A DNA stretch of 64,000 nt from Thuidium tamariscinum (Eukaryota > Streptophyta > Bryopsida > Hypnales > Thuidiaceae): the NCBI GenBank assembly GCA_947034885.2, contig OX344750.2, positions 40,596,821-40,660,820 on the forward strand. Reading direction: 5' to 3'. Each line of letters begins with the position of its first letter. Positions within the stretch are counted from its first letter, which is position 1. The translations under genes and the position numbers were made by a program. Positions 15,717 to 60,346 of this stretch are shown piece after piece. Under the pieces are notes generated by a model. It had not been told where the DNA came from, did not search any database, and saw only the letters and a program-made list of their open reading frames with translations.

Positions 15717-16044
15717 TCATGATGGTGGTGTTAAAATTTCAAAAGTAACTTGGAGTCCGCTTTCAATCTTCTTTTTACACGTCAAATCTATAAATTTGGT
15801 CATTAAAAAAATATGAGGTTAAAAAGGCCTAATATGCATTACCCCAATCAATTTGTAGCTTCTCAAAATCTACTTTATAATCTTTTTAAATGAATTTCTA
15901 ATGTTTTTTTTTGTCTAAGATCTAGTGTATTTGAGGCTCATTTCCGAAAGCTGTTAATACTACAAAAAGTGAAGATTGCTTAGATATCCTTGTACAAAAT
16001 TTCGAATAGAAAAATCATAAACCATCGTTTTCAAGATCATTTTT

Positions 16045-25009: not shown

Positions 25010-27225
25010 CCAGTTTGAAGATAATTTGCAAATCCCACAAGTTCAAATCTCTTAGTGAGAAGTGAAAAACTCTAGCTAGTCTTGGAGCACAGTAGTTGTT
25101 ACTTTTGATCATCAAGGTAGGAACATTGGAAGAGCTTTGTATAGTGAAGCATTGCAAGATTAAAAATATAAACTAATAAATTTTCAACGTTTAATGCTCC
25201 AAAAGAAATTCCTGAAGATTCCTGTCCAACAATTCACCTGTCCAAGCAAGTGGAGCTAATGCATACAAGCATGATGAGATCGAAACAATTCAAGCAGATT
25301 TCAAACAAATAAGTGAAAATTAAGAGTGACTGAGGTGCTTGTATGCAAAATACCAGTGTGTAGGCGCAGGGTCCTTGCACTATATATGCCTGTCGGTGAA
25401 AACCAAAAACAACAACAACTTGCGTTTCCCATCTTGAGTCGCGAAATCATATTCGAGATTTCTGTCTTCATGTTTCTTACAGTATTTTTCTTGGCATAGT
25501 TCACGATGATGTCATCGTGATCATAACTTGATTTCATATGTTAAGCAGCAGGGCTTGGTTTCTAACTCCTTCGCAGCTCAGCAAGACTGCGTCCCCAACT
25601 TGTCCCCAACTTGTAATACGTTCCTGTCAAAACCTTTCGAAATAATGGAAGTGAAGCTCCAGAAGTGCTGACATAAACAAACGAAGTGCAAGCCTAACTA
25701 CATGCAAGTCCAAGAAATATGTATGAAAATCAATCAACTAAGACCCCGAATTAACAGGGAGACAAACATCAATAGACATCAATAGTAGTGATGAATGAAC
25801 TCACCAATAATGAACCGTAGCTTGAATCGCCTTGTCCCCCCTTTGCAGAAAGAACTGAACCATATGATATCACGACTCGAGGGGAGGAACGCCAAACGGG
25901 AGTGCCAGACATATGGAATCATGGCACTCTGTGCATTTTGAAGTAACAAAAATGCAAGCTGTGCGTTATGCTCTTGACTTCCTGCAAAATTGAAAACTCA
26001 ACATGAAAACCCAACATGAAACTGCTGCAACTGGGAGACAAGAATAAGCTACAAGTTACAACAACAGTGATGAAAGAACTCGACCAAGCTGGTGCTCACT
26101 TTACAAACCTCATCTATTTCTAAGTGACATACATGAAGCTCAGAAAGCTCGTGTTTGATTCTGACTATCGACTAATTGCAAATTCCAGAAATCAAACATA
26201 AAATCGATCCAGCAACAAATTGAGCTGCTGAAACAGCCAGGGCGACGCTTAGCTTATACGTACAACACAACAGCGGTGACATTTGCACGGTAGAAGTAAC
26301 TCGATCACTAGATCACAACCTTGTTACGTCTTCACCAAACCACACCCTTTCAAAACCAAACGAGTACAGTTCTAAGCAGGCGAAAATTCCAAACAACACT
26401 CCGGTCGTTCCCAGCCATGGTCGATGGGAAAGTCTACTGAGCCCTCTTCCTCGCGACTAGATCTAGTCGTCATGAAAACAGACAGAAAGCGAGAGAACTC
26501 GATCAGCACCTGAGATCGACGACGCCTGGAACTCCCTCCTCCCTCCGCCTTGAGAGCTCGCTCCAGTTGAAATCTCTAGAGAGCGCAGCGTGACCGATAC
26601 TCGTTCAGGACATGTGCAGCTAGCTAGCTACAATAGGCTTGATCGAGTCCTCAATCACAAGTTCGTCGACTGGCACAGAAGCACATGCAGCACAGAGCAA
26701 TGCGAGAATGCATGGACTTCAGCATGAATGAATTTGTGCTGTACGTTTTAAGGTGGAGCTAGCCCTAAGGCGTGCAACCTCTCGGTCGTCATCTGCCTTT
26801 CGTCGGTGCGAGAAGGAAGACAGTCAGTCCGTCAGAATGCTTGCTTTCCAGTCCCGGGTCGGTGCTGAGTGTACAAGTGCAAATTTATGGGCGTCCCAGA
26901 CTGACTGATCACAAAAGCTCTGTGCATGCATGTGGCGTGAAGGCAAAGCTAAGGAGCGACTGGTACCGCTGTGCATGCAGGGAGGGACTTCACATCCCAG
27001 TCCGTGACCTCCATTTGCAATTGTACAGCAGGTCTTTTCGGCCAGAATTGAATTGATCGAAGGCACAATGACTCCAATGCAAGGCAGGCATGATCGAGGC
27101 ATCGCTTCAATTCCGATCGAACTACAGGGCCCATGCCGGTTGCCAGAAGTACCCGGCCTGTCAGCTGATCGTCCTGGAAATGGGTGTGACAGCCGTCCTG
27201 GTTGTTTAATATCTAGCAGTTTTTG
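25010..27225 (+). repeat. Left arm of a large imperfect inverted repeat
   Basis: Blocks along this arm recur as reverse complement, in reversed order, at 27575-30190. Pairs include AATCCCACAAGTTC (25030) with GAACTTGTGGGATT (30152), CAGTAGTTGTTAC with GTAACAACTGCTG, AAATTCCTGAAGATT with AATCTTCAGGAATTTC, GAGTCGCGAAATCATATT with AATATGATTTCGCGACTC, CGTTCCCAGCCATGG with CCGTGGCTGGGAACGG, and CACATCCCAGTCCGTGACC with its complement near 28010. No coding function was recognised. Confidence 0.85.
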
Positions 27226-27574
27226 CACATACTCACTTGTGATTAATTTTTGTACACTAACTAATTCACCCTGGCTAGCTAGTAGTGCTGAAGTCCCTTA
27301 TACTAGTTCTACTATACCAGCCCTTGAGTTTTCGAGAATTCTAGCCATCGTGTTAACTATTTCATTATAGCTAGACTAATCAACTAAAGTTCCAGTTCAG
27401 TGCTTTTCAAGATCGAATTTATGGCAAATTTTAGCACTTTGAAGTGAATATATATACCGCAATTTGGAGGACTTCAAATGCAAAACACTACCACTACAAT
27501 TCACTGGACTTTGAATTTGTGTGCGAGAACTAAGAACGTGAATTAGTGAATTTGTGCAGAAACTGCTAGACAAA
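27226..27574. other. Centre of the large inverted repeat
   Basis: About 350 nt of AT-richer DNA separating the two arms. No gene, terminal signature or hairpin of its own was seen. Confidence 0.5.
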
Positions 27575-30190
27575 CAACCAGGACGGCGTCACATCCACTT
27601 CCAGGACGATTGGCGACAGGGTACGTCTGCCAAGCGGCATGGGCCAGGCTGCAGTTCGATCGGAAGCGATGTCTCGTTCATGCCGCGCGTGCCTCGCATG
27701 GGAATTCAGTGATCGTCACATCCACTTCCAGGACGCAACAGGGTACCTCTGCCAAGCAGCATGGGCCAGGCTCCAGTTCGATCGGAAGCGATGTCTCGTT
27801 CATGTCGCGCGTGCCTCGCATGGGAATTCAGTGATCGTCACATCCACTTCCAGGACGCAACAGGGTACCTCTGCCAAGCAGCATGGGCCAGGCTCCAGTT
27901 CGATCGGAAGCGATGTCTCGCTCATGCCGCGCGTGCCTCGCATGGGAATTCATGATCGCGCCTTCAATTCTGGCCCAAAAGACCTGCTGTACAACTCGAG
28001 ATGGAGGTGACGGACTGGGATGTGAAGCCCCTCCCTGCTGCTCATGGGTACCAGTCTCTCCTTAGCTTGCCTTCACGCCAGACAGAATTACCTTTAGGTC
28101 AGTCTACGGCGACAGGGATGACCGTTTCCTCTTGCGCTGACCGTTTCCTCACCGCTTCCTTCTTGCACCGACGCACCGACGCACCGACGAAAGGCGGATG
28201 ATCGATCCATGTCTTAGCTAGGGCTCTCCCCTGGCTAGCTTACATAAACAGTAATGGAGCAAAGCCTTCAGCAACAACACAAACATATCCATTCATGCCA
28301 GCTGAAGTCCGTGCTTTAATTTCTCTGCGCTCCATTTGCATGCTCAGCAGCCGATTAGCTTGTAGGTGATCGAGGACTCGAGCCTTTTGTAGCTAGCCTC
28401 ACATGCATGTGCTGATCGAGTGTGGTCAGGCTCCGTTCTCTAGAGCCAGATTTCAACTTGAGTCGAGGGAGCTCTCAAGGCGAGGCAGAAGGGAGTTCCC
28501 GGTGCCGTTGATTTCAGGTGCCGTTGATCCCAGGTACTGATCGTGACGACGAGCAATCAATAGACTTTTCCAATGACCGTGGCTGGGAACGGCTTAAGTG
28601 TTGTTAATCTATAATTTATACATGGAACTGTACTCGTTTGGTTCTGGTTAGAATGAGTCCTTCTAATTTGCTGGGAATGGTGTGGAGGTGTGCATGTTGT
28701 GGGGGAGTGGTTTAGTGAAGACGTAACAAGGTTGAGAGTGATCGAGCTAGCTAGTTCCGCCTGCAAAATTAATTCTGTGATGTTGTATATACATGTATAC
28801 ATCGCCCTGGCTGTGTTTGATTTTTTGTTTGATTTCTCAAATTTGCAGTTAGTCAAGAGTCAAGACAGTCAATGCTTCGATCTGAGCTTCGTATGTGTTA
28901 CTTAGAAATCGATGTGGGCTGTGGGTTGAATTGTGGGTTGTGGACAAGGTTGTGTTATGAGAGTGAGTTTTTCATCACTGTTGTTGTATTTTTATCTCCC
29001 TGCAAGTTTTCATGTCGATTTTTTTATTTTGTAGGACGTCAACAGAATAAGTCACAGCTTGCTGAGCTTCGTTTATGGTATTTAGAAGTGCGCAGAGCGC
29101 TATTCCATCTGGCGTTCATCTACTTGAGTCGCGATATCATATTTGAGTCCTCTCTGCAATGTGCACAGACAATTCAAGCTACAGTTCATCGTGGGTGAGT
29201 TCTTCCATCACTATTGATGTATTTCTCCCTGACTGCTTGGGGTCTTAATTAGTTGATTGATTTTCATATTGATTTCCTGAATTTGCATGTAGTTTTGCAC
29301 TTCGTTTGTTTATGTTAGTACTTTTCGAGCTTCATTTAGATTATTTCAAAATGTGTGGAATGGAACATGTAACAAGTTGGTGTCTTGGTGATGCAGTCTT
29401 GCAACTGCTGAGGAGTTAGAAACCAAGCCTGCTGCTTAACACAAGTGAAGTAGAAGAGGCTACCATGTGGGAGAAATTGGACCATTAACACCTACTAGTG
29501 GAAAACTAATATGAATTCACCGCTTAGTAGGTAGTAATGGTCCAATTTTTCCCAAATGGTAACTCCTCTTACTTCTCTTGTTTAATGTATGAAAGCAAGT
29601 TTTGATCACAATGACATCATAGAACTATGCTAAGAGTAATAGTGGAGACAAAAAAAACATGGAGACAAAAATCTCAAATATGATTTCGCGACTCAAGATG
29701 AGGAACGCCAGTTTCTTCCACTGTAAGGTCATGGCAAAGACCATGGCCTTCAAGATAGTGCAAGGACCCTCCTACCTAAGCACTGGTATTTTTGCATTTT
29801 GCAAGCACCTTAGTGAGATTTATTTTCAGTTTTTCAGGGTTTTTTTGTTTGAAATTTTCTTACATTTCTTTATCTTGTATGCTCTAGGCCTCCAGCTTCA
29901 CTTGCTTGTACTTTGGTGACTAATGCTGAACTATTGTGCAGGAATTTTCACCTGAGAATGTCCCACATAATCTTCAGGAATTTCTTTTGAACATTAGGTG
30001 TTCAATACTTATTAGTTTATATTTTCAATCTTGCAATGTTTTACTGTACAATGCTCTTTCAATAATCCTCCTCGATGATTGAAAGTAACAACTGCTGTAC
30101 TCCAAGCCAAGCCAAACTTATGAATGAATTGAATCCCGACTGAGAGATTCGAACTTGTGGGATTTACTGAATTTCTTCAAGCTTCTTGTT
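27575..30190 (-). repeat. Right arm of the large imperfect inverted repeat
   Basis: This is the mirror of 25010-27225, with divergence and indels. It carries an extra ~244 nt near the centre from a 122-bp tandem triplication. One plus-strand frame at 28872-29198 stays open for 108 codons but resembles no known family and has no intact counterpart in the left arm, so I do not call it a gene. Confidence 0.85.
27588..27954. repeat. 122-bp tandem repeat, three units
   Basis: Two near-identical units begin GATCGTCACATCCACTTCCA at 27711 and 27833. A first, more diverged unit starts near 27588. The spacing is 122 nt. Because 122 is not a multiple of three, the overlapping frames with repeated peptide phrases are an artefact. 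The left arm has only one copy. Confidence 0.9.
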
Positions 30191-38126: not shown

Positions 38127-39940
38127 TTTTCTTTCTCATTCATTTGGGTGATTTAATGCCATTTCATAGTCGTAGCAGGATGATGCTTTTCCAGTGACTC
38201 ATCATTCTAATTCTCTGACTCAAATCTGAAATGTTAAATCTGTCACTATAAGCAATCGTAGGGAAAATCTCTTTAAATTTATGACCCACTCATACTGTAC
38301 TACAGAAACTGAATTCAAATGAGTGACTCTCTTGCACTAATTTGGGAATAATGTGAATTTGCTACACACAAATATGGTAGTTCAGAGTATTTTCAATCAA
38401 TTGTGAATATTCTGAGCTGCATTCTTTTTCTACTATCTTAACCCATGAGCGCCCTAGTGCCTCAAATCTGGCCTCCCCAAATTGAAAGATTGCCATGTTT
38501 GACTATTATAATCTTTTCTACACTAAATCAAATGATTTGTCCATTTCCATGCTCTTTCAAGCCTATCTTCCCTATCTTCCCTATTGATTGGTACTATCAA
38601 TTTTTGTGTGATTGTTTGATTGGAATGAGTTTAGATAGGATTGGATTTTGGTAAACATGCACTAGGTGCTCAAAGGTAAAGATTGTAATTGTTAAACACA
38701 TGTATTTTTAGTAAACTTTTTAGTAAACTTTTTACTAAACATCTCCTTTGTGATCTTTACTTATAATTTTGTATTAAGGACTATACTTAAAAAATTCACT
38801 CAAAACACCCCTTTTTCTTGTCCTAATTGATATAATGCTTTGAGGGAATCCCTTCGAACTCAGTAGATGAAATTTGAGGGCATTAGGAGACTGCAGGTTC
38901 TCGGATTGCAGGAACGCAATTTTTGCCCTATGAACTTGAATCCTACGTGGTTGTGACCCTGCCACGTAATTAATTAATTTTTTTTTGAAAAAAAAATTGG
39001 ACTTATTTTCATATTTCAAGAGCCAAAATATTTATTTATTTATTTATTTTGGATTAAAGCCGACTTGACAACGGCCAACGGCATTGGGAGCCGTTTCGGG
39101 AACAGACCCAAAACGGTTGTGATGCCCTCAGATTTCTTCTAATGCTTTGGAACTCTTTGGAACTTAAGGCATATGTAGTGATGAAATTAATGGAACTTTG
39201 AGCAAATAACTTAAAGTTATGAATGAACTTGCAAGTAAAGTCATTGATTAAATTAATAGAATTCTAAAATTAATTATTGAAGTAACTGACATACATCATT
39301 GATAGCATTGTAATTTTGAATAGATGATTGAAGTGCAAAGTTTGAATAGGTTGGATATAAGATAGGAATACCAATAATTGTTACCCCTCTTTTAAAAATT
39401 ATCTTGAAATCAACAATAGTTGGTTGTAAAAAAGATTTTGAAAAGATTGAGTTTGTTGGCATTTGGTTGGCTCCTTTTACTAAAAGCAAGTTCCAAAGGT
39501 AGATTGTTAGGTAGGTGAACCTATGAAACAAGGATGGGTTCTAATTGAAAAATCCACATTTATATTGCATAAAATATTCATTCTTGAGGGAAAAAAATTT
39601 ATTTTTTTAATATTTTTCCTTAGGCTTGTTTTTGTACATATTGAGTTCGATTTCTCAAAGTATTCCCATCTCCTAAATAGGCTAAAATGCTTATTATAAC
39701 CATTTATGGTATTCCTACCTTATACTACTTGAGCACTCTCAAGCACACCAATTTTTCTCAAGACCCCTTTAAGTCTAATTTCAAAATTGAAGGATGCAAC
39801 CAATGAATCTTTTTCAACTTCCTAGTCAACCAATGATACTAGCATAATTCCAACTTTCAAGCTAGCCAATGACTATGTGCAGATTAAACTAAATTTACCT
39901 TGATGGATGTTGGAGGGATTATTCCAATCTTTAAGGGGAA
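38127..39940. other. 3' region of the GNAT gene and AT-rich intergenic DNA
   Basis: No gene is supported. A short TTTA run (near 39030-39050) and simple AT-rich sequence are present. Confidence 0.45.
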
Positions 39941-39944
39941 GGTG

Positions 39945-40167
39945 GCTGTTATGTGAGCTTCAAAATGTGAGCCTAGAAGCCTAGAAGATTGGACACCTAT
40001 AGTATAAGTATCTTTATTAAAAAAATCTTCAATTATTATAATATATTTATATTATAAATACCTATATTATAGGTGTTTTTATTATAAACACCTTTAAAGG
40101 TTATAGTTTATATACTTATATATTCAAGGCTCACATGCTCACATTTTCATGCTCACATACTAGCAAA
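39945..40167. mobile_element. MITE with MULE-like termini (copy 2)
   Basis: The left end is GCTGTTATGTGAGC and the right end GCTCACATACTAGC, with repeated TGTGAGC subterminally. Read as reverse complement, the interior lines up with the copy at 15482-15716 (CACCTATAATATAGGT-type and CTTCTAGGC-type blocks). No clear target duplication was seen. It is about 223 bp and non-coding. Confidence 0.65.
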
Positions 40168-46465: not shown

Positions 46466-46474
46466 CTCATACCA
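46466..46474. repeat. Left 9-bp target-site duplication of the MULE
   Basis: CTCATACCA, identical to 60338-60346. A 9-bp duplication is the usual Mutator-like length. Confidence 0.92.
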
Positions 46475-46550
46475 CAACGACACTACCATGTGAGCGGGGA
46501 GCGGCGAGCGTTGAGCATTGAGCAATGAGCAATTAGATTTGAGCGCTCAT
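46475..46550 (+). repeat. Left terminal inverted repeat of the MULE
   Basis: Starts CAACGACACTACCATG and continues through CATGTGAGCGGGGAGC into a run of TGAGCATT/TGAGCAAT-type 7-8-mers. The counterpart is 60262-60337. The repeated TGAGCRT units inside both TIRs could be transposase binding sites. Confidence 0.9.
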
Positions 46551-46744
46551 AACAAGAATATATACTGAAAATAGACATGTCAGAATAATAAATAGTTTTG
46601 TCAGATCTAAAATAGTAATGTCAGAAATCTAGAAAAGGAAGAATTTAGTAAAAACTTTGTAAATTTTATATTACACATATACACTGAATTTTTTTTCAAC
46701 AAAGATTATTACATCCATAGACATGCTATATGAATGAACCTTAC

Positions 46745-46830
46745 ATATGTCATCCATCCATCATCCATCATCCATCCATCATCCATTCATCATCCATCCA
46801 TCATTCATCCATCATCCATCCATCATCCAT
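46745..46830. repeat. Subterminal CATCCATCATC simple repeat, left
   Basis: A run of CATCCATC and CATCATCC units about 270 nt inside the left end. A related CATCTTCATTCATCC run lies at 60020-60150 near the right end, on the same strand. Confidence 0.85.
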
Positions 46831-47453
46831 GCAAATAAGTCTTTATTTAAATTTTGCTATATATCCTCCAAAATTTAATTTTTTTGGTTTAGGTTTATAG
46901 TTTATGAATGACATTAATTTATTAAGATTATTAGAATTTGTATTGTTGATTTGGAAGCTTTTTTATTTAATTTTGAACTACTTCAATGCTCCTCAGAATC
47001 CAATAGCCATCTTAGAGGTCATTTGTAGAAATGTAATAATTTATGCAACAACAAAATTTTCCGTCATTTAGAGCTATTCAGAATTTGAAAGGCCATTAAT
47101 ATTCACTACAAAATTGTGAAACTATGACTTCAACAATGTTTTTTGGCCACAATAATGTGTCCCTTAGAACCAAAGAGCATCTTCCCAAATCATTTGTAGA
47201 ACTGTAATACTTCACCCAAATTACAACACACTATAGTCTTGCTGAATTCATCTTTTTTTATGTATTTTTTTTTATGTTTACGGTTTTACAAATGATTAAA
47301 ATAAGTCCTAAGAGTCCTTGAACAAACTATTCTTGCTTTCAAGTGATTAGCCTTTGAAGCACATTAGAGTTAGGACAATGAATCATTATTTATCCACCTC
47401 TAAACAAAATTGGTGGTAATTTCATTATCTACTACTAGATGTCTATGCAACAT

Positions 47454-50400
47454 CTAAAGATTGCTATTTTGAAGAAGTAACTTCACTTCATTGAAGCTCA
47501 GACTTGGAGCATGGATATACTTGTCATCTTCAAAATTGGCCTTGCATACAAATCTGAAGACATAATACAGATGCTTGCAATTCACCCATGATTTCTTGCT
47601 ACCAAGTGCAGCTGAACTCATAGTAACAAAGTCTTCGCAGGTACAAGTAGGGAAGTCTGAAATTGTGACCCGATATACCTTCTGGTGGGGAAAGATACCT
47701 GACATTAAAGTTATGACTCGCCCATATCCAGGGTATGGAATGACAACTACATATTGAATAACAACTTTCAAATTTTGTACTGTCTCCCACTTGTTCTGGT
47801 GGTCAACTGTAGGTGCATTAGGGTTACGCCTAATGGTCCTCCCCAATCGCTTTGTGGGATGCACATCAGAGTCAGATGGTTGCATATCTATATCCAGCTG
47901 CGATGGACAAAGAGAGGACATACCTTTCTCTGCGTTGTCTTCATTAAAAAGGTGGAATGCTACATTGCCTACCTCTTCAGTTTGTAGTTGGAACCCTGCT
48001 TCCTCCAAGGAAAGAATCTCTAATTTGGTGAGATGTGTTCCGTTTGCTACGGGCCATACAATTGGAAGAGCGGGCCAGTCGTGAACCCATTTTACCTTAG
48101 ATCCTCCTACACAACGGTGAAGGTCATCTGCACAGAACCAAAAATCAAAGTTGATGATGGCCTTTGTTCCGTATTCAGTCATGCGGCCATTGTAGGTAGG
48201 TGCTGCCGTTCCACTCTTTTTTGATATGTTTATCTTAGCGCCGCATTTCTTCTTCATCCCAACTTGAACGGCATGACAAGTCTTTCCTTCTTTTTTACAC
48301 CTAGCAATGTACCACAAAGAAGGATTACAATCGGTTTCAAAAACCTTAGTAGCATGTGGACATACCGAGCTTGGTTCACCTTCATCTCTCACAGTTGACG
48401 TTGATGTGCTTGCTTCTCTCCTTGCTCTAATTGAGCGAGTTTGAACCATTGGTGTTGAGAAGTTAACTGTATCGTGGCGGTGAGAATTGCTGTCCGCCCC
48501 TGGTGGAAGATCTAATTTGCGCTTCGTGGATCCAAAAAGTTCTTCGCCTTCCAAATGTGGGACCCGCATAGCGAATAACTGGGTACTAGGAAGTTTGGCA
48601 ACAATCTCAACAAACTTAGTTGGATTCTTGCTTCGTCTTGCAACTCGAAGGCGAAGTTCATCCAAGTTGGGGCCAGTGTTAGATGCATATCCTTGGAGGT
48701 ATGCCCAGTAGTTGGTAGATTGTTGAATAGCTCGCATCATGTCATCTGTAGTAGCAATGTACAAGCAAGTACCTCTCTTTCCGGACATTTGCAACCACTT
48801 GTTGTGCACTGTTTTTGCTAGGTTGCAAGAAGGCATTTCTACTAGTTCCTCCAAGCTCAAGTTCTGTACCACAACAAACGTTTCACATTCATGTGGTAAG
48901 GCTTCTTAGGTTCTGAAATGCCTATTATTGAATTCAAAACCAATTGACAACATGTCTAATTTGTACATTGCTAGAGTTTTGTAAAGAAGTCATTACATTT
49001 CAAAGACATGAATTTCTAACTCTTAAGGCATTTTTTCTTGAATACAATTTGAGTTGTTAGTCTAAAATGTAAGAAAACTGAAGAAGCATATAACTTACCA
49101 ACTCTAGAAATCCACCCCACTGTCGATAGCGAAAGTGCCAAAAACCAAGCCAATCATCAAGAGCTCGGAGAGAATCTTCGGAGGCAGCCCTTGAAGAATG
49201 CCACCATCCTTTAATTGCAAGGTATCTTTCTTCAGCTTCGGCCATTGTTTTAGCATCTTTGTATTGTTTACAAAGCCTTTTGTGAGTTTCCTGGAACTGA
49301 GGTTGAATGTGCTTTTCAGTGTGTATTCAGAGATGTCGTCCAATGAAGTAAACACGAGCGCTCCCGATCTTGCATAGGCTCTTGTTTGTTTCCACTTCCA
49401 TAATTGACACGAACAGCATGCCAGTTGGCCATTGCGTTGTCAGCCATGAAGCCCTTAAAATTTGGAGATGGAATACCGTGGCGTGCCATAACAGAATTTA
49501 GAGATCTCCACATCTGCTCTTGTGACAACGCATCTTCACTCATTATGTCACAAACACAAATGGTGAGAACTCGACAAAACTTAGCATCATAGACATGTGC
49601 AGCCATCGTTGTCCATCCCTTCACCCTTCTTACATGGTCAAACATGCACCAAGATGATTGTAGATCTCCACTTGGTTTCATTCTCTTCACAAGATCCACT
49701 CCACTTGTTGGACCTTCTTCAGACATCTTGAAAAGGTAAACCTTTTCTTTACCTTGGCCTGGAAACACACTATCTTGGATGTAGGAATATGCACTTCTCT
49801 TCTTCAATGATATGATGTTGTCTACAGGTCCTTCACTTGCAGTGTGACGAAAATTGGAGATTGTATTTCGAATACTCGGTGAACTGAGTATTCAAAACTT
49901 TTCCATCACCGCTTCTAGTGCCTGACCTTTGAGAGGCTTTGGCTCGCCCTCCAGTTCTTCATTCTGAAACAACTCAGATGCAAGGAACTCTTTGCTAGCA
50001 GCAAGACTTATGGCTGAATTAGTGGCAGACGGTGTTTTATAAACTTCATGACTTATCAAAGATGTTGTCCGCTCAACAAATGCACGACAAACACCCCTTC
50101 CAAGTTCCAACGGGATGTTTGTGATAGCCAACATGGATACAAGCTCTTCCAGAACCATTAGAATTGAAGACCCTATACATGCGACAAGGGTATAATGACT
50201 TGCAAGAAGGGGACACTTTGCAGATTCGACATACAACACTGGATTTTGTAGGCGATTCATTCCCTACAACAAAGATAACAGGTGATGACCCCTTCCACTC
50301 ACTCTCGTTTTTGTCTCCACCACGTTGCATTCTAGGGCAATCAGGATTCTCGCATATTAGATGTCCAATACAAAAAGAATAGCGAAACTCCAGACCAAAG

Positions 50401-51227
50401 TCATTAGCAATATTTGTAGTGTGTGTATGCGTCCACATGTGTCCATCAAACCTACGATCCATGCCTTCTAATAAACGACCTACAGAGGAAGAGGATTGCA
50501 ATCTGGATAAACCACTAGAGGAAGATGATGGAGACGAAAGAGGAGGCAATTCAAAAAGTACATCTCCATTGAATGATTGTGGAAGATGAGGGACAGACTC
50601 AACTCGAAGTTCATCTAGGTTCAAGAACTTCAACTCATTCCGAGCGCGTGGACAACTCTGCATATCCTTGAGGTAGTGAAAGACGCTATGAACTTGCGTT
50701 GAATTTTGTGTACCTACTGACAGCAAAGTGCTACCATCAACATCTTGATTCATCACCAAAATAGTATCTTCGTCAAACTCAAGTATAGGAGACAACTTTC
50801 CAACTACTTTACTAACCAAAACAGCGTCGTCATCATCAGATTCGCTAAGATCGATATGGATAGGATCCAGAGGCTCTACTTTTACACGACTTCCCAAAGG
50901 CATTTGCACTGTAGACATTACAGATTCAAGTGTGACAACATTAGGTGACACTGACCTTGCAATACTTGGGGTCCCAAATGCATGGTACTTGCCAGAGGGT
51001 AGTCTCCATACATCTCCTTCCTCACTCTTAATCTTCAGTTGCATGATAGTTGACACAAGTTGTCCTCCATCAGAATCAAATAGCTCCTCTTCCACCCACA
51101 AAGAAGACAAATTGAGGTTGAACCTTACACTAAGAATCAATGCAGATATGCATGCTACACCATCATTGTTGCAAGGAAATGATATTGGAATGCTAGACCC
51201 ATCACCACGAACAAATGCCATGTCCAT
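47454..51227 (-). pseudogene. Mutator-like (MULE) transposase gene, frameshifted
   Basis: The minus-strand order is as follows. 51227 to ~50090: an N-terminal region with an acidic, Ser-rich stretch and a Cys/His zinc region (CENPDCPRM, VVCRICKVSPSC, HVGYHKHP) of FLYWCH/WRKY-GCM type. ~50120-49892: a helical segment with GRGVCRAFVERT. 49807-49316: the DDE core with CMFDHVRRVKGWTTMAAHVYD, FMADNAMANWHAV and ERSCLLHW, i.e. the MULE D, D and CxxH features. ~49335-49090: EAEERYLAIKGWW and WLGFWHFRYRQWGGFLE. After an intron, 48866-47454: LVEMPSCNLAKTVHNKWLQM and a SWIM-like CTCEDF...CKHLYYVF finger near the C-terminus. Two frame changes (about 50100-50120 and 49315-49330) break it. It would bind the TIRs and catalyse cut-and-paste transposition if intact. 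Confidence 0.88.
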
Positions 51228-51785
51228 ATTGGCATGTGCATACAGTCTACAAACTTGTACTCATGGTCTTTGCTTGCATGGTAACATTTAAAAGCTTGTT
51301 GATTTGTAGTAGGAGGTAGAAGGCTTTGAAGTAGTTGATTTTGAGAGTAGCCATTTTTGGCTATTGGCTTTTAGTGACTTGAAATTTGAATTTGAAAAGG
51401 TTTACATTAAAGGATTTCAAATTTGGCCAATGATTGAATTCTTGTATTTGAATTACCATTAGATGATCCTCAGTTAGATTATAAATTTTAAATAGCGCCA
51501 CATACAAAAGATGGAGGCACATTAAAAGCTAGGAAATGGAGGCTCCCTAACCTCCCTTATTGTAAGGATGATATGTTCAAATGTAGGAATAATTATGAGG
51601 TAGTTGAGCGAAGAAGGAATGATCTTAGTGCTCGTTGATGTCGTCATAAATAGATGTCCTTCCATTTGATTGGATGAAAATGCATTCATCAGACTTTGAG
51701 AGTGCTATGTATAGGCGAGATGGCAAAGTTGATACCACATTGAGAAATAGAATTAGTTTCATGTGAGTGTTTTCATTTTGCAGGG
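51228..51785. promoter_or_regulatory. Divergent intergenic region of the MULE
   Basis: 558 nt lie between the start of the leftward transposase gene and the first rightward ORF. A GTTTTCATTTTGCAG acceptor lies just before the rightward ATG at 51786, so that transcript probably begins with a leader intron. No TATA box was assigned with confidence. Confidence 0.5.
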
Positions 51786-52236
51786 ATGCCAAAGGGTTCT
51801 CATAGGAAGAGACGTAAGGCAGGTCTTTTGTTTTCTAGTAAGAAACAGTTAGAGAAATTGAGGATGCTTCGACGTTTGCAGAAAGCCAATGGAGGTGATA
51901 TGAGTAGTACTATTCGGACCTTGTCGTATGAAGATGATAGAATTGAAGTCGGACATATTGAGTGTGGAAATAGTTGTATACAAAGTATAGAAGGAGCAAA
52001 GGTTGCTGAGCTTGATAACTTGGATGAAATTGAAGACAGTGTGCATCAATCAAGTACACTTGCAGATATCATGTTGCTTGAAAGTATAGAGTTGGTAAGT
52101 GAATCAATTTTTTTGATAGAAGATGAGTCATTAGAAATTTAGAAGGTGAACAATTGAATTTATATGATATTTTTTTTGTAGAGGTGCATTAGGAACAAAT
52201 CATCATTGCGTGTATTTCAAGAAGACGATTCCAATG
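51786..52236 (+). CDS. Small basic-to-acidic ORF of the MULE, possibly 5' exons of the accessory gene
   Basis: The first exon, 51786-52094 (103 codons), starts MPKGSHRKRRKAGLL and continues KKQLEKLRMLRRLQKANGG: very basic, nuclear-targeting-like and probably helical. It then turns acidic (LDNLDEIEDSV). It ends at a good donor (TTG/GTAAGT). A second exon, 52182-52236 (RCIRNKSSLRVFQEDDSN), follows a TTTTGTAG acceptor and ends at G/GTATAT. Joining this to the exon at 53907 breaks the frame by one, so either an exon was missed, an indel has occurred, or this is a separate small gene. No known family was recognised. Confidence 0.5.
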
Positions 52237-52394
52237 GTATATAGCATGTAAAAAACGGAGCTTTTTTAAACATTCTACGGCCTAAAAACGAATTCAGCAT
52301 ATTGGAATCTTCTCTGAAATCTTAAAAATCAATAGATTTTTTGACCAAATCTTGCCCATGTAGTTTTTAGAGAAGTTTGCTGATTTTTGTAAAA

Positions 52395-52830
52395 TCACTC
52401 GGGAGTCCAAAAAATCTGAAAAAAATTGGAGTGAGTGCTAAGGTTATAATCTACCCATAGAAAAATTTTGGATTCAAAATCTTCAAAATCGCAGATGTTA
52501 TTCAAGAGATTCTCTTGCCCTAAATCTACCAATTTTGTACTCTTTTTTTTTTTTCCAGACCAGCGCAGCGCATAGTTGCACACATCCTGGGGTTTGCTCT
52601 CTTCCACACTTTCTTTGTTTTCTTCGTGTGTTGCGTTGTACATTGGTGGATGTTCTTTTGCAATGAACTTACGAAGTGCAACAATGCGGAAGGATGGAGA
52701 GGCGGCGAGGGTGGCGAGGGCGGCAAGGGTATACCTGATTGCATCGAAGGTGTCCACGGGCTGGAAATTGAAGCCACCGAAACACCACAGTAGATAACAT
52801 TTCTGACCATCTTTGTGCTGTAGCTCATCG
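52395..52830 (-). other. Possible captured host gene fragment inside the MULE
   Basis: This GC-richer block has minus-strand frames such as KDGQKCYLLWCFGGFNFQP followed by VDTFDAIR and then a GT dinucleotide (AATCAG/GTATAC). It differs in composition from the AT-rich sequence on either side, as captured exons in Pack-MULEs do. The source gene was not recognised, and the overlapping plus-strand frame (52576-52797) is as long. The identification is weak. Confidence 0.3.
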
Positions 52831-52849
52831 CCTCCTTAACAAGGCATCA

Positions 52850-53885
52850 ATTTTGAGTTTTCCTTTCCTCTCCTCGAGTTGGCGGAAGTTTAGAAGACAT
52901 GTTCAAAAAAAGTTATTTTTTGCTAATTTAGGGTGTAGAAGACCACCTCGTCAACGAGGTGGCAATTCACAGTTTTTTACTACAAGGTTGCAATCAGCTA
53001 CCAATACATTCAAAAACATGTTTCAGATTTTTTTTCAATTGCTGATTTACGATTTTAGGTTGTAGAAGGCCGCCTCGTCAACGAGGTGGCAAATTTAGTA
53101 TTTCTATAGTTCTCATCAATTAGTCTAAGCTTGCTCTACATGTTGTACAATTTTTTTCCAATGGTTGATTTTGGTTTTAGAAGACTACCTCATCAACGAG
53201 GTGGCAATTTCAAATTCTAGGCTTATGATGAACTAGTCAAAGCTTGTTAAAAATGTTGTTGAATTTTTTTCTTCAATGCCTGATTTTGTTTGTAGAAGAT
53301 TTCCTCGTCAACGAGGTGACAATTTGAAATTCTTTAGGGTTGTAATGAAGTAGTCTAAGCTTGCTAGGAAAGTTACTAAATTTTTTTCAAAGGCTGATTT
53401 TACTTCTACAAGACCACCTCGTCAACGAGGTGACAATTTGAAATTCTTTAGGCTTCAAATGAAGTAGTCCAAGCTTGCTAGGAATGTTGCTGAATTTTTT
53501 TTACATGGCTGATTTTGCTTCTATAAGATAGCCTCGTCAACGAAGTGACAATTTGACTCTCTTTAGGCTTCAAATGAAGTAGTCTAAGCTTGCTAGGAAT
53601 GTTGCTGAATTTTCTTTTACATGGCTGATTTTGCTTCTATAAGATAGCCTCGTCAACGAAGTGACAATTTGACTCTCTTTAGGCTTCAAATGAAGTAGTC
53701 CAAGCTTGCCAAGCATGTTGCTGAATTTTTTTTTACATGGCTGATTTTGCTTCTATAAGATAGCCTCGTCAACGAAGTGACAATTTGACTCTCTTTAGGC
53801 TTCAAATGAAGTAGTCCAAGCTTGCCAAGCATGTTGCTGAATTTTTTGTAATGGCTGATTTTGTTTCTAAAATACCACCTCATCC
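52850..53885 (+). repeat. Tandem array of ~115-bp units with a central palindrome
   Basis: The inverted-repeat core, CCACCTCGT-CA-ACGAGGTGG in the best copies, lies at 52943-52962, 53070-53089, 53185-53204, 53300-53319, 53414-53433, 53529-53548, 53645-53664 and 53761-53780. A ninth, half core lies at 53875. Spacings are 127, 115, 115, 114, 115, 116, 116 and 114. CCTCGTCAACGA is identical in seven of eight cores; copy 3 has CATC for CGTC. The rest of the unit is AT-rich and also conserved (TGGCTGATTTTGCTTCTA; AGTAGTCTAAGCTTGCTAGG), most strongly in the last four copies. The array ends some 30 nt before the first exon of the accessory gene. Confidence 0.95.
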
Positions 53886-53912
53886 TACATCTTGTTGATG
53901 AAATAGAACTTC

Positions 53913-56900
53913 ATGGACATTGATGGAGGGCTTCTCCAAGTGGAAGGATTGGACCTCATCATCAATGATGATTCTCAGCCTACCATTACCATTGCACCGA
54001 TAAGATTTGTTTCTAACTCTTTTTGCTTTTATGCATTCTTCATTGACTATTCTTGTTGCACCATTGTGATTCATTATCCATTGAGTTTCAATGTAATGCT
54101 TTTTACTATTAACTAAATTTTTTGTTTGAATGTACCATTCATTATAGGTGGATCACATTGTTCAAAGTGAAGGTCTTGATCCATCTTTTGAGGGGCGAAC
54201 TATGGAGGAGGTGGAACAAGATGTGCGGAATGGCCAAAAACTTGACTCCAATGCTATTATCAACAGTATGCTATTCAACGGTGGTGGATCAGGATCACGC
54301 TTTGATGTTCTTTTGTGCAGGATGATAGGACTTCCATTGGTTCGCCCCCTTCTTCAGAGTCAAGTGAAACGATTGGAAGCCGAGTTTGTCCATGGATACC
54401 GACAAGGTGATCGGGTACTTTATGTGTCTACTACAAATGACAAGGGACTATGCAAATTAGTAACCCCGGAGATTGTGGAGACATGGGATGATCATTGGAT
54501 AGAGGAGAATGACCAATTTAAATGTTGGTTGAAGTCTCAACCATCCATCTCACATTTGTCAAACCATATGTTCTTTGTATGGGATGGCAACCATAGATTG
54601 GCAGCTTGGTATGATTACATCAACAGGATGCATCGATATGATCGTGAGAAGCATATACCCGTTGATTGTATGCTTCTGGTATCAGAGGGTCGTACATGCA
54701 TTCTATTGGAGGCTATGAATGACATCAATTGGTGAGTTTCATTTTCTATTTCAAATGTTTTTCTTAAACTTCATCACTTCCTTTGGTGTATTGCACTACT
54801 CTATGATTTCAAATTCCTTTATCTTACTTTCTATTTTTGTGGCTAATTGTAGGTCTACAGAGCATTCCCATGTCAAGAGCAATTTGGTTCAACAATTGCA
54901 CAGGATGAGTACATATGGCAACATGAAACTAGAGGAATTTAAAGGTCTTCTAAGTGATGAAGATTACAAGAAATGCGAGAACAGAAAACTCCCAGGTGCT
55001 TGGTATCCATTGACATCAAACGTCTTCATACAATTTCTTCATCGAGTGAGTGTACAATCTTTGCTAAAGTTTTTCATTCATTTGTTGAATTTTCTTAAAT
55101 TTGTTTTACATTGGTTTAACACTCTTATTTTTCATGTGCAGCAAGAGATTGCTATTGTTTCAAATGCTACAGTAGGAACATACTATGAGAAAACCAAGCC
55201 CGAAGATCGAACTCCAAGAGGTGTACATGACGCCATGACTCTAGCCGCCACTGCAGCTATCAAGGGGTTTCGAACAGAGTTTGATAAGCAATCAGCCATC
55301 ACAAATCCCAAAAATGGCGTTGGATTCTTGGAAGAGGTATGTAATTTTGATTGCTTTCAAATGAATGAATTGCATGATTTGCATAATTTGCTTGATTACT
55401 TTTGGTATTGGTTTTCACCATGATTTCTGATCTTTGAAATTTTAGATCTACTTGCATTACAGCGCCAATGAGAAGCCAGAGATGTCATTGGAAAAACTTC
55501 AGAGGATATCTACATGTGTAGTTCAGCCACACTACAAGGTTCGTTGGCTTCGTTGGTGGAACTCTAGTGAGACTTACAAGGAGGGCTTCAGATTTCCTAC
55601 CCTTGGTTTCAACACATTAACCTTAGAGACTTGGCTCTCTAAGGCTGTTTTTTGGGCTGAGGTATATTATGAACCTTTTCTTTCATTCACATGATCACTA
55701 CTTTCTTTTATAAGCTTGTAAATATTTGCATTATTCTTCCATTGTTGTATCATTATATGTTTTACTTGAACAATGTTATATTTATTTTCTTGGAGTTGTT
55801 TGTTGTTTGTAGTTGGAAGAGGCAGCAAAAGCAGAATTCACAAACATCATCAAATCTGAAAATATTGTGGTTCAATGGAGTGCTAATGATGAATTGGATA
55901 CAATTGGAGATTATGTGGAGACATGACGTATTGTATTATGGGGTCATGGTTTTTGGTGGCTCTTCAAAAAGGATTCTTCATATTCAAGGTCCACTCCTTT
56001 TAAAGAGCAAGAGGATATAGATGCTGCAACAAAAAGGCTTCTATACAGGTAGACCTTTTACTTCAATTTCATTCATTTGTATAAATTTGAATTGCTTATT
56101 TCCTTTACAAATCTTTAAAATAATGACACTTGCATCTTCATCATTGCAATGATTTCATTTACTCTATGAATGCAGATATTTCAAGTGAGAGTTGGTTCAA
56201 AAAGGTGGGATTGAGAGGAGATCCATGCCCAAGCTTTTGAAAAGATGGCTTGACACATCTTTGAAGGGTTGTATGTTCACCTTGACTCAACAATGGGGAT
56301 ATTCTATCCAAGAACTTCAAGCTTGTTCTTGGTACTTGGAGTGTCCAAGGACTTTTGCCCCTGCTCTTGAAGGACCTGAGAAAGAAGCAGTCAAAGACCA
56401 TCCCAAATCAGTCACACAGCAAGAGTCTTTGGATGAAGAAGAGGAGCCTGAGGAGATTGTGCTAGCAAAGAAGGGGCGCAAGCCAAGGGAGAAGAAGGTT
56501 ACAAAGAAAACAAAGAGTGACAATGCAACCAAAGATGACACCTCCTCTTCATCTATACCTGCATCTATTATTGCACCTCCTCCTCCTATGCCTTTTGGTA
56601 CAGTTGAGGTGATTGATACAGCTCGTTCTCATTGTCCTCCAACTCTTATGTCTATTACAACAGATGTCTTTGCTTCATCTGAGTACATTGCCAGATCAGC
56701 AATTCAACCTGATAGACATGGAATTGAGCCTCAAGCTCTATTTCTACCATCATTGATTTCTGCAATGCTCAGCATCAAGGAGAAGACAGGGGACAATGCA
56801 CCAGCATGGAATGAAATGCTTGATTTTGCCAAAAAAGTAAGATTTATACTCCCTAGTGTTGTTGTAATTCTTTCTATTTATTTTACAAGTTGTAAACATG

Positions 56901-58367
56901 ACATTGCAATTCATTCATACAACTAAAATTGTGTATTTCTTATGTTTAGGTTGGGAGGGAGCGGGTCCGAACTCTTGGAGGCAATGAGAAGCTTGCTCCA
57001 TACTTTGACTTGATTGTTGCAGATATCCCCGATGGATTACCAGTCCCCAATACCTCAGTTTCACCATCTCATATCCTTGCATGGAATATTTTAAATGAAG
57101 AAGAGGTTATTGAACCCATCTTTGAGTTTGCTTCAGAGCACATTCATGATGATGGAGAAATTTTGTTGTTCCATTCAGAGAACGGCAAGGTAAAGGAATT
57201 TATACTTGAGCGTGCTGATGCATATGGGTTTTGTTTACTTGATTCATGGACAGGTGTGAACGAGCTAAAGCTTTCTAGTTACAAGAAATCCAAACGTTGG
57301 GTAAGTTCCATTGAAATTTTCCTAATGTTTAGTTTTAAATGTTTGAACTTATTTCTTGCAACATTGTATTTATGAAGTATTAATTGTGAAACTTGTTTAT
57401 CCTTGGCAGTCGCAACTCTTTCGAATCCTTCTCTTTGTACGAAGCAAATGGGAGGAAACATTGGTGGTGTCTAAGTTCTCTATCTATGTGAACCAACAGC
57501 TTAGCAATGCAGGCACAAACCTTGAAGAAATTGATCTTCTCCACAACTTCACCTCTTCACAGACTCAACTCATGAATGGTACAGTTCCATGGAGAGGTGC
57601 TCGTGAGAAGGATCCTTTATTTGTGCAACTATTGATTGAGGCATTTTCAAAACCTAGCGATGTGGTACTAGATTGTTATGCATCTACAGGTATATTCTAT
57701 TAGCTATCATTTTCTCAACCATTTTAAAAAAAAATTGTGTGTCACATATTTGTTGCAAATTATAACTAATGACATTCTATTGAATGAATAGGGGCCTCTA
57801 TTCATGCATGCCGCAACATTGGATGTCATTTGGTGGCCTTGGAGAGTGATACTGAGATTTATAAAGCTCTCCTCCAACCTTTGAACATTCCTCCTTCTTC
57901 CACTGCCAATGATCAAGTCAAGCGCCCTCTATGCGTAGTGGTAGATGATTCTGATGATGAAGACATTGTGAGGCCTTCTGTAAGGCCCCGAAAGAGACGT
58001 TGCTGTAAGTAAGTTGGTTGTTGTTTTCATGCATGTCTTCATTTTCTTCTATCGTTTGATATCTCAAAATTTTCTTGAAGCTTCTAATTGTTTTTTCATT
58101 GCATTTTGTAGAGGCAATCCTCTTCAGCATTTTGTGCTCTCACCTTCACCTAGTCCCAAGAGTTTGCCATGTTACATTGAGACTCTAGCGACAGCTATGG
58201 CAGAGGCTCCATCACCCATTCGTATTGCCAAATATCCTTCATACAATGTTGTTGTCAAAAAGTTTTTAGACCTTGAGGCTGAGGTTGAGACACCAGGATT
58301 TATATGCAGTGATAGTAGTAAAGGCAGTGATCATTCTTCTCCCATATGTGGTATTGGGTCAAATTGA
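53913..58367 (+). pseudogene. ParB-like plus beta-class methyltransferase-like accessory gene of the MULE
   Basis: Eleven exons: 53913-54008, 54148-54731, 54853-55045, 55142-55336, 55446-55661, 55813-56048, 56176-56836, 56950-57300, 57410-57689, 57792-58004 and 58114-58367. They sum to 3279 nt, 1093 codons including the stop. Borders are GT-AG; exon 1's donor is weak. Residues ~33-227 hold a ParB/sulfiredoxin-like domain with FVWDGNHRLAAW. Residues ~575-640 are a Lys/Pro/Ser linker (KKGRKPREKKVTKKTK). Residues ~728-1000 follow the beta-class order of N4/N6 DNA methyltransferases: DLIVADIPDG in place of the DPPY motif IV, later FVQLLIEAFSKPSDVVLD then CYASTG in place of DPFxGSG motif I, and VALESD. 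The altered catalytic residues suggest weak or lost catalysis, perhaps leaving a binding role. TGA codons at 55924 and 56186 interrupt this copy. The two-domain reading is from motifs only. Confidence 0.72.
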
Positions 58368-59095
58368 TCTTGTTCTAAACACTATTGTTGTTACTTGGTT
58401 TTCTAATATGATGTAGTGAGACTAAAAGGGCCACTACATTCTTGCACCTTATCATATTCTCGAGTTATTTTGCATTCATGTGATCCTAAGTGTGGTGATA
58501 AACGTTGTCTTTGTTCTAAAAGAGAGTCCCCCACTTTAAAAGACTTCTTCATTTTAGATGTAAATTATTAGAAATGTTTGTAGCATTAGAAGAGAATTGG
58601 CCTTTCTATGAGATTGTTTCAGCTTGTTTCTGATTTTGTTCCCAAAACAGCAAGGTTGCCGTCTGATCCTGAATTTAAAAATTGTTAAAAATTATTTAAA
58701 ATTTAAAAAAAAAATTGCCTTTGAAATATGAAAAAAAGGAAGGGAAAAAAAATTTAATGACATGGTCATTGCTTGACCACATTAGCGCTATTGCCAAAAC
58801 AACACTATAGTGCTGCAGTGAGTTTTCCAAGTGCCGAAAACTCACAGTCTCCTAGAGAGGTCAAATCTCCCCTAATGATAAAAATATTTCTTGCAATTAG
58901 CAACATTCTATTTTTTTTTAATTTTGATTTTATTTAAAATAAAATTAGTAGTAAACAAATATTGGTATTATATAATGTAATAAATGTTGGAATTAGCATA
59001 GAAATAAATTTGGTGAATCTCAATTATAATGCTTAAAAGTAATTAGAAATTTTGATTAGAAATGGTACCTCCCTTGAAATAATATTATAACATTA
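58368..59095. other. 3' non-coding part of the MULE
   Basis: AT-rich, no gene. A 10-bp stem hairpin, GTGAGTTTTC / GAAAACTCAC with an 8-nt loop, lies at 58818-58845. Confidence 0.5.
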
Positions 59096-59828
59096 GGGTC
59101 ATTGCAAGAAAGACCGACTGATTTATGTAGCGTTTTCCACAATACTGCTGAAATTTTCGGGAGTATTGTATAATTAGAAAAACAATTTTTAAAAAATGTA
59201 AAAAATATGTTTTAGGTATATACCTCTAAGAAGAAGGTACCCTAGGAAGGAAAAGTGTAGGAAAATTCTCTAAGTAGGAGAACTAGAAAAGTGCAAATTT
59301 TCATGAAAATATATACTTTGACATTTTAATTTGTAAAAAATAGGAAAAAGAATTTTAAAAAAAACTAAAAATTGGAAATTGGGGAGAACTTTATGATGAA
59401 GAGATTTCACCAAAAGAATGATCCCAAAACCATCTTAAATGTTCAAAAGTATGCGTGCAAGGGAGGCCTGTTCACGCATATGTAGAGGAAAGAGAATAAT
59501 GATTTTTAAGATTTCCTTTGGTAGAAACATGCCTACCTAGTATGGGAATAGGCCACAGAAATTTTAGCTTTAGATCATTAATTTTGGATGCTCCCTAGTA
59601 CTAAAAACCCCTAAACCGCAAAGTGTGACAAATTAGCTTAATTGAGATTTAATTATAAAATGATTTTTGAAAATTTCTGAAAAATAAAGAATTTGATTGT
59701 TGTCATGTCAGAAATCTTTAGTCAAAATTTCAAGTTAATATGGCTCATACTTTAAAAGTTATAATCAATAACAACTCCGTCATTCAAAGTGTGACGCAAA
59801 ATAGTACCGGTCTTTCTTGCAATCACCC
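59096..59828. mobile_element. 733-bp TIR element (family member B), nested in the MULE
   Basis: Ends GGGTCATTGCAAGAAAGACCG and the complement of CCGGTCTTTCTTGCAATCACCC. Flanked by ATTA on both sides (59092-59095 and 59829-59832). Length and terminus match the element at 43890-44620, and both share AACTTTTAAA/AACTTGAAATTT-type inner blocks. It inserted into the right non-coding end of the MULE and is non-coding. Confidence 0.75.
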
Positions 59829-60019
59829 ATTATGTAAACATAGATCCCTAATTTCCAAAAAATCACCTAAAACTTTAGATCTTGAATACTTTATAATTGT
59901 CCTTTAGCCTAAAGAGATATTTTATAATCTCATCCATCAATCTTTCAAATCTTTTTTCATCCAATGCGATGAACAACACATATATTTCATCCAAAAAATC
60001 CAAATATAAAAAACTCATC

Positions 60020-60150
60020 CAACTCCGTTCATCTCCATTCATCCCTATTCATCTTCATTCACCTTCATTCATCCCCATTCATCTTCATTCATCCCCATTC
60101 ATCTTCATTCATCTCCATTCATCTTCATTCATCCTCATTCATCCCCAATT
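60020..60150. repeat. Subterminal CATTCATCC simple repeat, right
   Basis: Runs of CATCTTCATT and CATCCCCATT about 190-310 nt inside the right end of the MULE. It generates a spurious His/Ser/Pro/Ile frame. The partner repeat is at 46745-46830. Confidence 0.85.
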
Positions 60151-60261
60151 TTCCATTAATCCTCATTAGGCACTTCTATAGCTATATATTTTTATTCAAA
60201 ATCATTGATATAGGTATATTATGGTGAAAACTTGGAAAAATTTTACAAGTTAAAAAAAAAT

Positions 60262-60337
60262 TTCAATGCTCAATGCTCAACACTCGATGCTCAACGCTCA
60301 ACGCTCGTTGCTCCCCGCTCACATGGTAGCAACCCTG
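60262..60337 (-). repeat. Right terminal inverted repeat of the MULE
   Basis: Read on the minus strand it starts CAGGGTTGCTACCATG and then has GAGCGGGGAGCAACGAGCG, followed by TTGAGCGTTGAGCATCGAG-type units. The external 8 nt differ from the left end except at C1, A2 and G5. The inner 20-nt block is identical. Confidence 0.9.
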
Positions 60338-60346
60338 CTCATACCA
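60338..60346. repeat. Right 9-bp target-site duplication of the MULE
   Basis: CTCATACCA, identical to 46466-46474. Confidence 0.92.

What the first reader, a model, noticed from the sequence alone, without database searches (positions are those of the whole stretch)
46475..60337. A Mutator-like transposon carrying a ParB-like/DNA-methyltransferase-like accessory gene
Seen: 9-bp direct repeats, matching TIRs, a MULE transposase gene and, divergently, a ~1092-codon spliced gene. That gene has a DGNHRLAA (ParB/sulfiredoxin) box and a block in the beta-class order of DNA amino-methyltransferases. Known: MULEs can carry accessory genes; VANDAL elements carry VANB/VANC, and VANC counters silencing by binding clustered short motifs in the element. 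Inference: this element uses a different protein, with a prokaryote-like ParB-MTase composition, for an analogous self-recognition or epigenetic job. I know of no described MULE with this pair.
Basis: partly seen in the sequence, partly recalled or inferred. Interest (0 to 1): 0.93.

Follow-up and report, generated by a model that had tools for sequence, protein, structure and literature searches.

The report
Transposon carrying ParB-methyltransferase gene and sites
A jumping gene, apparently from a plant, carries a large protein that joins a bacterial-type DNA-clamp domain to a DNA-methyltransferase-like domain, next to a row of repeated palindromes that may be the sites by which the element recognises its own DNA.

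Summary
The element is real: 46475-60337, perfect 9-bp target duplication (CTCATACCA), terminal inverted repeats, a broken Mutator-like transposase gene on the minus strand and a spliced gene on the plus strand. That gene is also broken in this copy (two in-frame stops), but its ParB-like exon has 75 relatives among public predicted proteins, with a near-invariant DGNHR box. A model built from them matches ParB, Noc, SerK and sulfiredoxin. The later exons match PF01555 (N6/N4 DNA methylase) just above its cut-off. One distant relative (L001) has no stop in the stretches compared and keeps the domain order. In both genes the catalytic (D/N/S)PP(Y/F/W) motif reads D[IV]P[DE], so enzyme activity is doubtful. 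New here: eight ~115-bp units just upstream of the ParB exon, each built round a palindrome conserved far better than its surroundings. L001 has the same layout (four ~107-bp units) with a different palindrome; both share CTCG-N4-CGAG. ParB-methyltransferase accessory proteins are already reported in brown, green and red algal transposons (PMC12477816), so the protein is a known kind. The Mutator-like setting and the paired palindrome arrays were not found in the papers searched.

The parts
46466..46474 (.). left target-site duplication CTCATACCA
60338..60346 (.). right target-site duplication CTCATACCA
46475..46544 (+). left terminal inverted repeat (54 of first 70 positions match the right one)
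60268..60337 (-). right terminal inverted repeat
47454..51227 (-). broken Mutator-like transposase gene: stop at 49892-49894, at least two frame changes, one intron near 48885-49100 (approximate), CxC..CxH (SWIM-like) letters near the C-terminus
51228..51785 (.). region between the divergent genes, probable two-way promoter (inferred)
   Evidence: inference
51786..52094 (+). possible first coding exon (MPKGSHRKRRKAG..., GTAAGT donor); not confirmed by relatives. If real, the array lies in the following intron
52895..53881 (+). array of eight units (site spacings 127, 115, 115, 114, 115, 116, 116), each centred on a palindrome, best form CCACCTCGTC/AACGAGGTGG; candidate binding-site array
53913..54010 (+). 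probable start exon (MDIDGGLLQVEG...), donor uncertain, end approximate
   Evidence: position compared with the L001 ATG at 552
54148..54731 (+). exon with the ParB/sulfiredoxin-like domain, DGNHRLAA box
54853..56836 (+). exons 54853-55045, 55142-55336, 55446-55661, 55813-56048, 56176-56836: middle part; in-frame stops at 55924-55926 and 56186-56188
56950..58008 (+). exons 56950-57300, 57410-57689, 57792-58008: N6/N4 methyltransferase-like domain, motif IV ADIPDGLPVP, motif I LDCYASTGAS
58112..58367 (+). probable last exon, ends at TGA after ...CGIGSN

Best explanation
This is a decayed copy of a Mutator-like element whose family carries, besides the transposase, a divergent gene for a self-recognition protein: a ParB-fold NTP-binding clamp fused to a methyltransferase-fold domain. 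Proposed working: the ParB-like part recognises the array of palindromes that lies just upstream of its own ParB exon and, as ParB does from parS, gathers or spreads on the neighbouring element DNA. The tethered methyltransferase-fold domain then marks or shields that DNA, so that the element's promoters escape silencing or are self-regulated, much as VANC does for VANDAL elements. Shown here: the element, both folds, the array, and the same gene-plus-array layout in a second, distant locus. Inferred: that other family copies carry the gene, that the protein binds the array, NTP use, spreading, any base modification, and the benefit to the element.
Against: No binding, methylation or expression data. 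The shared CTCG core is only suggestive (chance 0.011 with fixed centre, 0.031 with +-1 shift), and the pattern was chosen after seeing both arrays. Three of the eight window sites pair at only 6 of 10 positions. The catalytic motif is D[IV]P[DE] in both genes, so methylation may not occur. No Pfam ParB model is reached by sequence. Foldseek gives no match at E 0.001 or better (best 6.7e-3) and VIA Z stays under 8. A DNA-binding HTH was not shown: the part after the ParB fold is poorly modelled. L001 carries no detectable transposase, is only 4691 bases and starts inside its array, so the link of gene to transposon rests on one copy. CpGs sit in the palindromes in the window array (16 of 17) but not mainly so in L001 (6 of 13).
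Confidence: 0.5

Rival explanations
1. The palindrome array is bound by the transposase or by host factors (subterminal or enhancer repeats); the ParB-MTase protein acts elsewhere or only as a general DNA-modifying passenger.
For: Subterminal repeats bound by transposases are known in other plant elements (recalled). The array sits in the region between the two coding parts, where a promoter or intron could be.
Against: The palindrome core is absent from the TIRs, and apart from three weak 3-mismatch places all matches in the window lie in the array. The array is about 6.4 kb from either end of the element. A distant relative keeps an array beside the same gene on a contig without a detectable transposase.
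Confidence: 0.25
2. The fusion protein is an active N6-adenine or N4-cytosine methyltransferase that writes a new mark on element DNA, as suggested for the algal proteins.
For: Beta-class motif order and a collinear profile match over most of the domain in the window gene (PDLC03371, residues 19-238 to 30-249, E 6.4e-6); last glycine of motif I and the acidic residue after it kept in both genes; same proposal in PMC12477816 (passage).
Against: The aromatic of (D/N/S)PP(Y/F/W) is replaced by D or E in both genes, and FxGxG reads YASTG or TASTG. In L001 the profile matches reach only the motif I half.
Confidence: 0.3
3. The gene was swept up once by chance (Pack-MULE style) and is an ordinary host gene elsewhere.
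For: MULEs tend to acquire host gene fragments (PMC6446971, start of abstract in listing). This copy is broken. The own genome could not be searched.
Against: Introns are retained and the gene is full length; the ParB exon has 75 relatives of 29-84% identity among 146 candidates, which would fit a transposon family, though their genomic setting is unknown; the upstream array is kept in a distant relative; the same pair is reported in transposons of three algal groups.
Confidence: 0.1
4. Motif resemblance only: no real ParB or methyltransferase domain.
For: No Pfam ParB model reached; Foldseek E above 0.001.
Confidence: 0.03

Closest known systems
Sola1-1_Ec32 accessory protein of Ectocarpus and the green and red algal cases cited with it (PMC12477816, passages; its refs 50 and 51 are not held)
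   Same: ParB-like domain plus N4C/N6A methyltransferase domain in one protein of about 1100 aa (1104 aa there), coded opposite to the transposase in a large DNA transposon; that paper also says transposase genes of such giant elements are frequently pseudogenized.
   Different: Different transposon superfamily (Sola1; giant EnSpm elements are named for red algae) against a Mutator-like element here; host here appears to be a plant. No palindrome array appears in the passages seen ('palindrom' 0 occurrences in that text). Sequence kinship between the proteins was not tested.
Phage and prophage ParB-N6_N4_Mtase (PF01555) fusions (PMC12704722, passages)
   Same: Same domain pair; a phage DNA methylase is among the structural neighbours.
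   Different: Eukaryotic, spliced, with a long middle part and altered catalytic motifs; below Pfam's ParB threshold, so that paper's PF02195 search with gathering cut-off would be expected to miss it.
VANDAL/VANC anti-silencing system (PMC5735166, passages)
   Same: MULE with an accessory protein (VANDAL TSD 9 bp in the table of PMC6446971); target motifs in tandem repeats in noncoding parts, including introns of VANC21 and VANB21 and upstream of VANA21.
   Different: VANC motif YAGTATTAY is short and in one orientation; here the sites are palindromes of up to about 20 bp. The protein looks of a different kind (no VANC sequence was compared).
DIRS retrotransposons with Dam-like N6A methylases and retrotransposons with DNMTs (PMC5890265, passages)
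   Same: Transposons that carry their own DNA methyltransferase.
   Different: Other element class and other methyltransferase families; no ParB part is mentioned in the passages seen.
Bacterial ParB-parS
   Same: ParB fold with a conserved GxxR box; palindromic sites near the gene.
   Different: No ParA seen in the element, no partition role suggested; HTH and dimerisation domains not shown.

Membership tests
Mutator-like element (MULE) | 8-11 bp target-site duplication (range as in PMC6446971) | tested here: met
   perfect 9 bp
Mutator-like element (MULE) | long terminal inverted repeats | tested here: met
   54 of first 70 positions, exact 20-bp core
Mutator-like element (MULE) | MULE transposase profile match | tested here: inconclusive
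   no MULE model listed; PF00872 Transposase_mut in 2 of 27 members, best E 0.034
Mutator-like element (MULE) | SWIM zinc motif CxC..CxH | tested here: inconclusive
   motif letters present in window and P0001; Pfam SWIM 10.8 bits against cut-off 19.6
ParB/sulfiredoxin fold superfamily | fold | tested here: met
ParB/sulfiredoxin fold superfamily | Box II GxxR phosphate motif | tested here: met
   DGNHR: D 75/75, G 75/75, N 74/75, H 73/75, R 74/75 of the rows with a residue there, out of 76 rows, window exon included
ParB/sulfiredoxin fold superfamily | Pfam ParB-family profile match | tested here: inconclusive
   none at threshold; weak hits only, such as DUF1015 in 13 of 76 and CB_ParB_C in 5 of 76
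Canonical ParB DNA clamp | HTH and binding to palindromic sites | tested here: inconclusive
   palindrome array present but region after the fold has low confidence; binding not testable here
Beta-class N6/N4 amino-methyltransferase | family profile match | tested here: met
   window PF01555 28.8 bits, cut-off 26.7; L001 25.8 bits, just below cut-off and over the motif I half only
Beta-class N6/N4 amino-methyltransferase | motif IV before motif I | tested here: met
Beta-class N6/N4 amino-methyltransferase | catalytic (D/N/S)PP(Y/F/W) (motif recalled) | tested here: not met
   DIPD in window, DVPE in L001; so methyltransferase-like, activity not claimed
Transposon ParB-MTase accessory proteins | ParB-like and N4/N6 methyltransferase-like domains in one protein inside a DNA transposon | tested here: met
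VANC anti-silencing proteins | homology to VANC and loss of cytosine methylation over the element | not tested
   no VANC sequence compared; methylation not measurable here

The most novel reading that the evidence does not exclude
Some eukaryotic DNA transposons, including a Mutator-like element, carry a complete ParB-parS-like self-recognition module: an array of palindromic loading sites beside the gene for a ParB-clamp fused to a derived methyltransferase-fold domain, with protein and site sequence changing together between families, used to tell own DNA from host DNA and keep it from being silenced.
Probability: 0.4. Interest if true: 0.85.

Novelty: new variant of a known kind. Interest (0 to 1): 0.62.

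Why it matters
The algal reports propose that ParB-methyltransferase proteins bind and mark their own transposon, but the passages read here name no binding site. A conserved array of palindromes at the same place in two distant loci supplies a concrete candidate site and makes the idea testable by a simple binding assay. If true, transposons in plants and algae use a prokaryote-type clamp for self-recognition, a second solution beside VANC. The altered catalytic motif also raises the question whether the domain still methylates DNA or has become a reader or shield.

Tried and rejected
Searches that gave nothing: full-length protein against 5.8 billion proteins, 7993 candidates scored, none at E 0.01 (in hindsight the length rule excludes exon-sized relatives). 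ParB exon against PDB sequences, none; phages with P0030, none; plasmids, two chance-level matches. Four scans of viral contigs with the exon, A1, A3 and A4, none confirmed. Methyltransferase part against phages: 282 records, of which 20 were listed, E 0.4 or weaker and under 30% identity in those rows, not used. Single-sequence model of the exon: pLDDT 36.6, discarded. The long L001 exon alone gave no Pfam methylase and one PADLOC methylase at E 0.021; the match appears when the last exon is joined. ORFs elsewhere in the window: 0 of 6 had a Pfam match at E 0.01.

Considered and dropped: that the GTCAAC centre is a methylation target (L001 has GATC at the centre; no evidence). That the 106-116 bp spacing reflects whole helical turns (10.1-11.0 turns by arithmetic at 10.5 bp per turn; the first window spacing, 127, does not fit so well; not tested). 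That CpG retention in the array shows low methylation (not repeated in L001). Linking ParB and transposase relatives by contig: the tables share no longest-contig length, so no link could be made.

That the gene is a host gene captured by chance was kept as a rival because the own genome could not be searched.
Full report
What is there. The element runs from 46475 to 60337, flanked by CTCATACCA on both sides. The first 40 positions of the two ends agree at 33 sites and hold an exact 20-bp core that occurs nowhere else in the window at up to three mismatches. On the minus strand lies a transposase-like gene. Read in joined pieces it finds 26 relatives (E 0.1 or better) among 7435 candidates, of 45-65% identity in BLASTP local alignments that cover 40-50% of the query. 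The family has invariant acidic residues and a nearly invariant CxxH and, near the C-terminus of the window gene and of P0001, CxC..CxH letters like a SWIM finger. No Pfam MULE model is listed; PF00872 (Transposase_mut) appears weakly in 2 of 27 members. The superfamily call therefore rests on the TSD length, the TIRs and these motifs. This copy of the transposase has a stop and frame changes.

The plus-strand gene. Nine exons with GT-AG borders run from 54148 to 58008, with a probable start exon at 53913 before and a last exon 58112-58367 after. A further possible first exon, 51786-52094, is unconfirmed. Two in-frame TGA codons break the gene in this copy. The ParB exon found 75 relatives among 146 candidates, the weakest at E 2.3e-8, at 29-84% identity. 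The box DGNHR is kept at D 75/75, G 75/75, N 74/75, H 73/75, R 74/75 of the rows with a residue there (76 rows, window exon included). Relative P0096 runs without a break from this exon into the next, and P0093 also covers both, which supports that join.

Methyltransferase-like part. PF01555 is matched at 28.8 bits (cut-off 26.7, E 1.5e-6); a PADLOC type II methylase model matches over residues 19-238 in order (E 6.4e-6); PDB sequence hits are weak, DpnA at E 0.002 and MboIIA at 0.04. Motif IV precedes motif I.

A second gene. One locus of the genome collection, L001, a 4691-base contig filed in a cyanobacterial genome, encodes a relative: 35% identity in the ParB exon, 33% in the methyltransferase part. 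It has introns. By the tblastn breaks five of them lie at places equivalent to introns of the window gene, and three were compared base by base (after the ParB exon, before the exon at 55813, and inside motif I); the other three window introns are absent from L001. So it is eukaryotic DNA. No stop falls in the stretches translated. It keeps D[IV]P[DE].LPVP, PWRGAREK and ASTGAS..AC. With two genes to go by, the departures from the usual motifs look like family traits rather than decay. The usual (D/N/S)PP(Y/F/W) motif is absent from both. In L001 the profile support covers the motif I half only, 25.8 bits against 26.7.

The array. At 52895-53881, between the two coding parts, lie eight sites spaced 127, 115, 115, 114, 115, 116 and 116 bases. 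Each holds CCTCGTCAACGAGG or a one-base variant. In the first five units the 18-base palindrome is 163/180 identical against 621/1053 for the rest; over all eight, 442/504 against 1935/2886. The best 16-column run is the palindrome itself and 0 of 10000 column shuffles reach it. The last three sites, in near-identical units, are less symmetric (6 of 10 positions paired). L001 starts inside a like array: four units spaced 106-109 bases, best palindrome ATTGGGTCTCGGATCCGAGACCCAAT, paired at 14, 12, 11 and 14 of 14 positions, followed about 155 bases later by an ATG in frame with the ParB exon. In the window the array ends about 30 bases before the probable start ATG at 53913. Both palindromes share CTCG-N4-CGAG; a shuffled half-site gives such a run in 1.1% (fixed centre) or 3.1% (+-1) of trials. 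The pattern occurs 4 times in the window, all in the array, and 3 times in L001, all in its array.

How it may work. A ParB-fold protein, a kept phosphate-box arginine and palindromic sites beside its gene suggest loading on own DNA. PMC12704722 (passages) reports that changing this arginine to alanine abolished nucleotide binding in the tested proteins, and that ParB-fold fusions to N6/N4 methyltransferases are frequent in phages. VANC is the functional model in MULEs: its targets form tandem repeats in noncoding parts (PMC5735166, passages). What the methyltransferase-like part does is open. I hold recognition of the array by this protein as likely but unproven.

What is known. PMC12477816 (passages) already describes a 1104-aa ParB + N4/N6 methyltransferase protein opposite the transposase of Sola1-1_Ec32, cites green and red algal cases, and proposes binding and marking of the own transposon. 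The MULE survey table in PMC6446971 (passages) lists no such gene in the groups shown. Paper searches for a transposon with ParB brought up, for a eukaryotic transposon, only the Ectocarpus paper among the rows listed; the library holds open-licence papers only. The protein is therefore a known kind; the Mutator-like setting and the paired palindrome arrays are what appears new.

Limits. One element copy, dead; own genome not searchable (thirteen unanswered calls); L001 carries no detectable transposase; host named only by inference from pentatricopeptide repeats in the ORF at 5489-6676.

Noticed in passing
window 25015-30180: Large inverted-repeat, fold-back-like structure: several arm pieces match in inverted order (for example 25539-25894 with 29441-29110, 76%).
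   Followed up: no
window 27587-27958: Tandem unit of about 125 bases, 91-95% identical copies, inside the fold-back structure.
   Followed up: no
window 15488-15718 and 39938-40165: Inverted pair, 79% identical, about 24 kb apart; may be ends of another element.
   Followed up: no
window 5489-8129, minus strand: Two long ORFs; the one scanned (5489-6676) holds pentatricopeptide repeats and a weak Smr match, which points to a plant host.
   Followed up: partly
window 46750-46830 and 60023-60147: Short simple repeats (CATCCATCATC; 10-base CTCCATTCAT) just inside both element ends.
   Followed up: no
L001 1-4691 (CADCWO010000058.1): Intron-bearing eukaryotic gene on a contig filed as a cyanobacterial metagenome genome: a contaminant in the public record.
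   Followed up: yes
L001 1-60 and 90-183: The L001 repeat units are palindromic well beyond the core (30- and 47-base arms, 85-87% complementary).
   Followed up: partly
window 54148-58368: Strong CpG depletion in the gene (observed/expected 0.31, against 0.62 outside the element), as would be expected of a methylated, decaying element.
   Followed up: partly
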